From NCBI RefSeq assembly GCF_023065955.2, contig NW_026622886.1, positions 9,062,001 to 9,126,000 of the forward strand: 64,000 nt of DNA, in the 5' to 3' direction. Position numbers and translations under genes: made by a program. This document shows positions 41,009 to 41,075 of the stretch, piece by piece. How positions within the stretch are numbered: the first letter of the stretch is position 1; each line of letters begins with the position of its first letter. The DNA comes from Ursus arctos. Lineage: Eukaryota; Chordata; Mammalia; Carnivora; Ursidae. The notes beneath the pieces were generated by a model. That model was not told the DNA's origin. It worked only from the letters and a program-made list of their open reading frames with translations, and ran no database searches.

Positions 41009-41019
41009 AAAGTAGGTCA
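41009..41019 (+). promoter_or_regulatory. CRY1: ROR/REV-ERB element (RORE), perfect
   Basis: AAAGTAGGTCA fits WAWNTRGGTCA at every position. ROR activators and REV-ERB repressors bind this as monomers. In mouse Cry1, intronic ROR elements are known to delay expression toward night. It forms the left arm of an inverted repeat with the site at 41065. Confidence 0.75.
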
Positions 41020-41051
41020 TTGTGACGGGGAGTATACCAAACCGCCCACTG

Positions 41052-41065
41052 GTTGCTATAGCAAT
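41052..41065. promoter_or_regulatory. RFX X-box-like palindrome
   Basis: GTTGCTATAGCAAT lies just inside the second RORE. Its core TTGCTATAGCAA is a perfect 12-bp palindrome and differs from an RFX-type X-box (GTTGCCATGGCAAC) at few positions. Binding is inferred only from the motif. Confidence 0.45.
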
Positions 41066-41075
41066 GACCTACTTT
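41065..41075 (-). promoter_or_regulatory. CRY1: ROR/REV-ERB element (RORE), perfect, inverted
   Basis: TGACCTACTTT on the + strand is AAAGTAGGTCA on the - strand, identical to the first site. The 14-bp arms AAAGTAGGTCATTG (41009-41022) and CAATGACCTACTTT (41062-41075) are perfectly inverted with a 39-bp spacer. Confidence 0.75.

What the first reader, a model, noticed from the sequence alone, without database searches (positions are those of the whole stretch)
41009..41075. Inverted pair of perfect ROR elements in CRY1 intron 1
Two identical AAAGTAGGTCA sites face each other within 14-bp perfectly inverted arms, 39 bp apart, inside a 1.3 kb repeat-free island about 8.7 kb before exon 2. Both fit WAWNTRGGTCA fully. 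Mouse Cry1 is known to need ROR elements in its first intron for its delayed, night-side expression. This is a strong candidate for the orthologous enhancer, and the inverted geometry could place ROR/REV-ERB molecules in a fixed mutual arrangement.
Basis: partly seen in the sequence, partly recalled or inferred. Interest (0 to 1): 0.85.

Follow-up and report, generated by a model that had tools for sequence, protein, structure and literature searches.

The report
Paired ROR sites in CRY1 intron
What looks like a carnivore's copy of the clock gene CRY1 carries two identical, opposite-facing binding sites for the clock proteins ROR and REV-ERB in its first intron, most likely the counterpart of a switch already known from mouse that makes this gene peak late at night.

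Summary
Two AAAGTAGGTCA sites (41009-41019 +, 41065-41075 -) lie in perfect 14-nt inverted arms with a 39-nt spacer. The site is 8,626 bp before a CRY1 exon 2 (49702-49810), whose product matches a solved CRY1 chain at 36 of 36 residues. The number of ROR elements in the window is ordinary (3 found, 2.06 expected). The opposite-facing pair is not: 0 of 200 shuffles and 2 of 1000 Markov simulations gave one within 56 bp.

Best reading: the counterpart of the mouse Cry1 intron 1 enhancer, where two RREs are reported, REV-ERBalpha and RORgamma bind, and a 300-bp deletion disturbs looping and shortens the period (passages).

I could not align it to any other mammal: no vertebrate genome is searchable here, and paper searches did not give the mouse letters. 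Orthology rests on gene, intron, site pair and motif.

The fixed-geometry idea is not supported: the cores are 50 bp apart (4.76 helical turns), and no passage I saw asks for inverted sites. The finding is largely already known. The open point is whether inverted, widely spaced sites can jointly recruit NCoR.

The parts
41009..41019 (+). RORE 1, AAAGTAGGTCA (exact fit to WAWNTRGGTCA)
41065..41075 (-). RORE 2, AAAGTAGGTCA on the minus strand, same 11 bases
41009..41022 (+). left inverted arm AAAGTAGGTCATTG (RORE plus three further bases)
41062..41075 (-). right inverted arm, perfect complement of the left arm
41023..41061 (.). 39-nt spacer; the whole 67-bp element is 46% G+C with 2 CpG (window 36% G+C, CpG observed/expected 0.2)
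41052..41064 (+). palindromic X-box-like (RFX) site GTTGCTATAGCAA ending where RORE 2 begins; motif label recalled, not from a call
   Evidence: 2 fits to GTTGCYANNGNAA in the window, 0.21 expected, 2 of 100 shuffles reach 2
41542..41547 (.). canonical E-box CACGTG in the same island, 467 bp after the end of RORE 2
40434..41762 (.). island with no other copy in the window by self-BLAST, holding the element
49702..49810 (+). CRY1 exon 2 (109 bp; acceptor ...CTGTAG, donor AAG|GTAATC), codes [36 protein letters not shown]

Best explanation
The 67-bp element is the core of the ROR/REV-ERB-responsive enhancer in CRY1 intron 1, the counterpart in this animal of the mouse Cry1 intronic enhancer. By day REV-ERBalpha/beta occupy the two sites and bring NCoR/HDAC3, which lowers enhancer acetylation and promoter contact. 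By night RORs occupy the same sites and the enhancer contacts and activates the CRY1 promoter, delaying CRY1 expression relative to pure E-box genes. Shown here: two exact sites, their pairing beyond chance, and their place in CRY1 intron 1. Carried over from mouse work: occupancy, looping and phase delay. Inferred only: that the two sites act jointly, and that the opposite orientation is tolerated rather than needed.
For: Exact paired sites with pairing rare by chance. CRY1 exon 2 is 8.6 kb downstream: 36 of 36 residues identical to a solved CRY1 chain; 5 of the 6 distinct sequences named Cryptochrome-1 score 66.1-66.9 bits, the 4 named Cryptochrome-2 about 57 (the sixth, 8c1u, named Cryptochrome-1, scores 48.6). 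In mouse, the intron 1 site 26 kb from the TSS contains an RRE, is bound by REV-ERBalpha and RORgamma, and its 300-bp deletion shortens the locomotor period by 15 min and compromises the rhythmic loop (PMC5900709, passages). [quoted passage not shown] REV-ERBalpha, with corepressors NCoR and HDAC3, acts on Cry1 looping (commentary PMC5900705, passages). The same 11-mer was used as a synthetic RORE (PMC5998136, passage) and lies in a BMAL1 primer of a chicken study (PMC10816401, passage).
Against: No alignment to mouse or any other mammal was possible. The Mermet passages speak of an RRE in the singular at the +26 kb site and of a second RRE site 7 kb upstream of the TSS, so the match in number rests on one citing paper. 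With no exon 1 match in the window, the element is more than 41 kb from exon 1, against 26 kb from the TSS in mouse. Three searches for stretches of the element in held papers (6 terms each) found none. A 12-mer of the arm is in 16 papers, none with CRY1 in the title and 4 with miR-432-5p (listing only). Bare motif matches are common.
Confidence: 0.85

Rival explanations
1. The two sites are a chance pair of RORE-like sequences in a neutral intron, and the real CRY1 enhancer lies elsewhere in or near the gene.
For: The RORE count in the window equals expectation; no conservation could be shown; one further RORE-like site exists at 28808; the part of intron 1 upstream of the window was not seen; mouse has a second RRE site 7 kb upstream of the TSS.
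Against: An opposite-facing pair this close appeared in 0 of 200 shuffles and 2 of 1000 simulations. The two copies agree also at the degenerate positions and three bases beyond. The gene is one where paired intronic RREs are reported.
Confidence: 0.1
2. The inverted repeat is what matters: a hairpin in CRY1 pre-mRNA or a DNA cruciform, and the RORE match is incidental.
For: The 86-nt stretch folds better than shuffles as RNA (z -3.10, 2 of 200 shuffles as good) and as DNA (z -2.98, 2 of 200).
Against: The stem of the predicted fold is the two arms, and the spacer between them is long (39 nt). No Rfam family reaches its gathering score in the island; one match of E 0.068, 19.9 bits against a gathering score of 50. 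Both arms coincide with a complete clock-factor site.
Confidence: 0.03
3. The 67 bp are a small inverted-repeat transposon remnant that happens to carry ROREs in its ends.
For: Short inverted ends around a unique middle are the shape of a miniature DNA transposon.
Against: No exact target-site duplication of 2-10 bp at the ends; no second copy in the window. The 6 other places with this two-site pattern in genome contigs are in bacterial records, and BLAST of the island against them gave nothing better than E 0.16. The rest of this animal's genome was not searched.
Confidence: 0.02

Closest known systems
Mouse Cry1 intron 1 RRE enhancer (Ukai-Tadenuma 2011, not held, known through citing papers; Mermet 2018 PMC5900709, passages seen)
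   Same: Same gene, same intron, RREs in one short fragment; two are reported by a citing paper.
   Different: Farther from exon 1 here (over 41 kb against 26 kb from the TSS). Letters, orientation and spacing of the mouse pair were not in any passage I saw, so they cannot be compared.
Bmal1 paired RREs / dimeric REV-RE (PMC9399252, PMC7840129, passages seen)
   Same: Two RREs in one regulatory element of a clock gene; the AAAGTAGGTCA core also lies in a BMAL1 primer of a chicken study.
   Different: Those lie in the promoter/5'-UTR region, in direct orientation as I recall; here they are intronic, inverted, 45 nt apart.
REV-DR2 element
   Same: Two REV-ERB sites acting together is the shared idea.
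   Different: REV-DR2 is a direct repeat with 2-bp spacing (recalled); here the repeat is inverted and wide, so it is not a REV-DR2.

Membership tests
ROR/REV-ERB response element (RORE/RRE) | A/T-rich 5' extension plus RGGTCA half-site (WAWNTRGGTCA) | tested here: met
   two exact fits
ROR/REV-ERB response element (RORE/RRE) | bound by ROR and REV-ERB in cells | not testable with these tools
   no ChIP data; the mouse intron 1 site is reported bound
Cry1 intron 1 RRE enhancer | lies in intron 1 of CRY1 | tested here: met
   CRY1 exon 2 downstream on the same strand, no exon 1 match in the window
Cry1 intron 1 RRE enhancer | two RREs in one short fragment | tested here: met
   two sites within 67 bp; two RREs reported for mouse by a citing paper, one RRE named in the Mermet passages
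Cry1 intron 1 RRE enhancer | sequence orthology to the mouse or human element | not testable with these tools
   no vertebrate genome collection; no match in held papers
Cry1 intron 1 RRE enhancer | night-phase activity and promoter looping | not testable with these tools
   reported in mouse
REV-DR2 dimeric element | direct repeat of half-sites spaced by 2 bp (definition recalled) | tested here: not met
   inverted, 45 nt between 11-mers

The most novel reading that the evidence does not exclude
The inverted, 45-nt-spaced identical ROREs, with an X-box-like palindrome abutting the second, form a distinct composite. One NCoR would be bridged by two REV-ERB monomers across looped DNA, giving CRY1 a different repression strength or timing from Bmal1's paired sites, and selection would hold both the identity and the orientation.
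Probability: 0.12. Interest if true: 0.55.

Novelty: already known. Interest (0 to 1): 0.3.

Why it matters
The Cry1 intronic RRE enhancer sets the late phase of Cry1 and in mouse influences circadian period. A copy with two intact, identical sites in what looks like a carnivore suggests the element is kept outside rodents. If the inverted geometry is conserved, it would be a simple natural test of whether widely spaced, opposite-facing REV-ERB monomers can share one NCoR.

Tried and rejected
Alternative intronic promoter: TATATAAA at 40981 starts 28 bp before RORE 1 (another is at 41557), and mouse has an alternative Cry1 first exon in intron 1 (PMC4718813, passages). That exon maps to chr10:85,183,342-85,183,832 in mm10, 1-2 kb from the canonical TSS as I recall the TSS position, so it is not the +26 kb enhancer. 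Donor strength does not exclude an exon here: the best candidate donor in 40950-41765 scored 6.2 on a recalled weight matrix, close to exon 2's own donor at 6.4. Set aside for lack of any evidence of transcription, not disproved.

Transposon end and RNA family: no exact target-site duplication, no repeat copy in the window, one sub-threshold Rfam match judged to be chance.

Search for relatives: viral contigs gave 0 matches to the paired pattern. Genome contigs gave 6 stretches, all in records with bacterial titles. Flanks and spacers differ from the window's, and in 4 of the 6 (L001, L002, L005, L006) the arms run past the RORE letters as long hairpins. L003 shares the 14-mer AAAGTAGGTCATTG on one side; the best BLAST match of the island to any of the six had E 0.16.

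Literature: 10 of 10 paper searches used. None gave the letters of the mouse or human element. The 11-mer itself is in 8 held papers; I opened 2 of them. I opened 15 papers in all and saw passages only, no whole text or named section. Of these, PMC2265523, PMC8240256, PMC13232009, PMC7404074, PMC8011416 and PMC11613641 added no letters and no geometry. Ukai-Tadenuma 2011 is not held.

Helical phasing: 50 bp between GGTCA cores is 4.76 turns, and 56 bp between site centres is 5.33 turns. Neither is a whole number of turns, so the fixed-arrangement idea gains nothing.

Full report
What is there. The window holds two exact copies of AAAGTAGGTCA facing each other at 41009-41019 (+) and 41065-41075 (-). 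They lie inside 14-nt arms that are perfect complements, with 39 nt between the arms and 45 nt between the 11-mers. Beyond the arms the two sides share only scattered single bases. No third copy within one mismatch occurs in 64 kb. One other sequence fits the looser consensus WAWNTRGGTCA, at 28808. The element sits in 1,329 bp (40434-41762) that has no second copy in the window by self-BLAST.

Is it more than chance? The number of consensus matches is ordinary: 3 against 2.06 expected, and 31 of 100 shuffles reach 3. The pairing is not ordinary. Opposite-strand matches with starts within 56 bp arose in 0 of 200 dinucleotide-preserving shuffles and in 2 of 1000 first-order Markov simulations (6 of 1000 in any orientation). 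Exact 14-nt inverted arms with a gap of 3-100 arose in 9 of 200 shuffles, and in 2 of 200 with at least five G/C in the arm. These figures do not correct for the many patterns a reader might have noticed.

Which gene? A tblastn with the recalled mouse CRY1 protein (without its C-terminal tail) found one strong match, on the + strand near 49.7-49.8 kb. All other matches had E of 0.8 or more, so I found no exon 1 or exon 3 in the window. The exon runs 49702-49810, with an acceptor and a donor in place. Its 36 complete codons give a peptide identical at all 36 residues to a solved Cryptochrome-1 chain (9dc0, the one alignment shown). Five of the six distinct PDB sequences named Cryptochrome-1 score 66.1-66.9 bits, the four named Cryptochrome-2 about 57, and the sixth named Cryptochrome-1 (8c1u) 48.6. 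The element therefore lies in intron 1, 8,626 bp before exon 2 and more than 41 kb after exon 1. The SINEs around it (for example 48610-48800) look like CAN SINEs of dog-like carnivores. This is a recalled resemblance; the species was not given and was not tested.

What is known. I read passages, not whole papers. In mouse liver a site 26 kb downstream of the Cry1 TSS in intron 1 contains an RRE, coincides with H3K27ac and DNase hypersensitivity, and binds REV-ERBalpha and RORgamma. A 300-bp deletion there lowers promoter contacts at all times, compromises their rhythm and shortens the locomotor period by 15 min; a further RRE site lies 7 kb upstream of the TSS (PMC5900709). [quoted passage not shown] A commentary describes REV-ERBalpha, NCoR and HDAC3 controlling Cry1 looping (PMC5900705). 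The REV-ERBbeta ligand-binding domain binds the NCoR interaction domain 2:1, and a dimeric site is needed for strong repression of a Bmal1 reporter (about ninefold against threefold; PMC7840129). Ukai-Tadenuma 2011 itself is not held.

How it most likely works. Two perfect RREs close together in CRY1 intron 1 are what the mouse enhancer is reported to have, so the simplest reading is that this is its counterpart: REV-ERB by day, ROR by night, giving CRY1 its late phase. Gene, intron, site identity and pairing are shown here. Occupancy, looping and phase are carried over from mouse. That the pair acts jointly through NCoR is inferred.

The geometry. The GGTCA cores are 50 bp apart, which is 4.76 turns at 10.5 bp per turn, so there is no whole-turn phasing on naked DNA, and the element is not a REV-DR2. 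One search for inverted-repeat terms with RORE and REV-ERB terms found 136 papers with at least 4 of 6 terms and listed 15; I opened one of those (PMC11613641, passages on Bmal1). In the passages of the 15 papers I opened I saw no report of a required inverted pair. That is a weak negative. As I recall, Bmal1's paired sites are direct repeats, so orientation is probably tolerated rather than needed.

What was not possible. No vertebrate genome, conservation track or ChIP data can be reached. The window's own genome could not be searched. Five paper searches for letters of the element did not produce the mouse or human sequence. Orthology is therefore inferred, not aligned.

Other features in the island: an X-box-like palindrome GTTGCTATAGCAA directly before RORE 2 and a canonical E-box CACGTG at 41542. 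CACGTG occurs five times in the window against 1.5 expected (3 of 100 shuffles reach 5). Both were noticed after the fact and carry little weight alone.

Verdict. Interest is modest.

Noticed in passing
41052-41064: Palindromic X-box-like (RFX, label recalled) sequence GTTGCTATAGCAA abutting RORE 2; 2 fits to the relaxed pattern in the window against 0.21 expected.
   Followed up: partly
41542-41547 and 12241, 22847, 37486, 50281: Five CACGTG E-boxes in the window, 1.5 expected; one lies in the same island as the ROREs.
   Followed up: partly
40981-40988: TATATAAA starting 28 bp before RORE 1, the shape of a TATA box; no evidence of a transcription start was available.
   Followed up: partly
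46119-47967 and 56333-61580: Open frames on the + strand that read like broken LINE-1 ORFs (which covered 45000-64000; recalled resemblance, no family search).
   Followed up: no
40264-40433 and 48610-48800: tRNA-derived SINEs resembling CAN SINEs of dog-like carnivores (recalled resemblance), which suggests the source is a carnivore.
   Followed up: no
L002 1718-1782, L005 2021-2085, L006 7057-7116: Two Planctomycetota contigs and one of Zavarzinella formosa carry near-identical hairpins AAAGTAGGTCAGGCTTTC...GAAAGCCTGACCTACTTT, perhaps a dispersed bacterial repeat.
   Followed up: no
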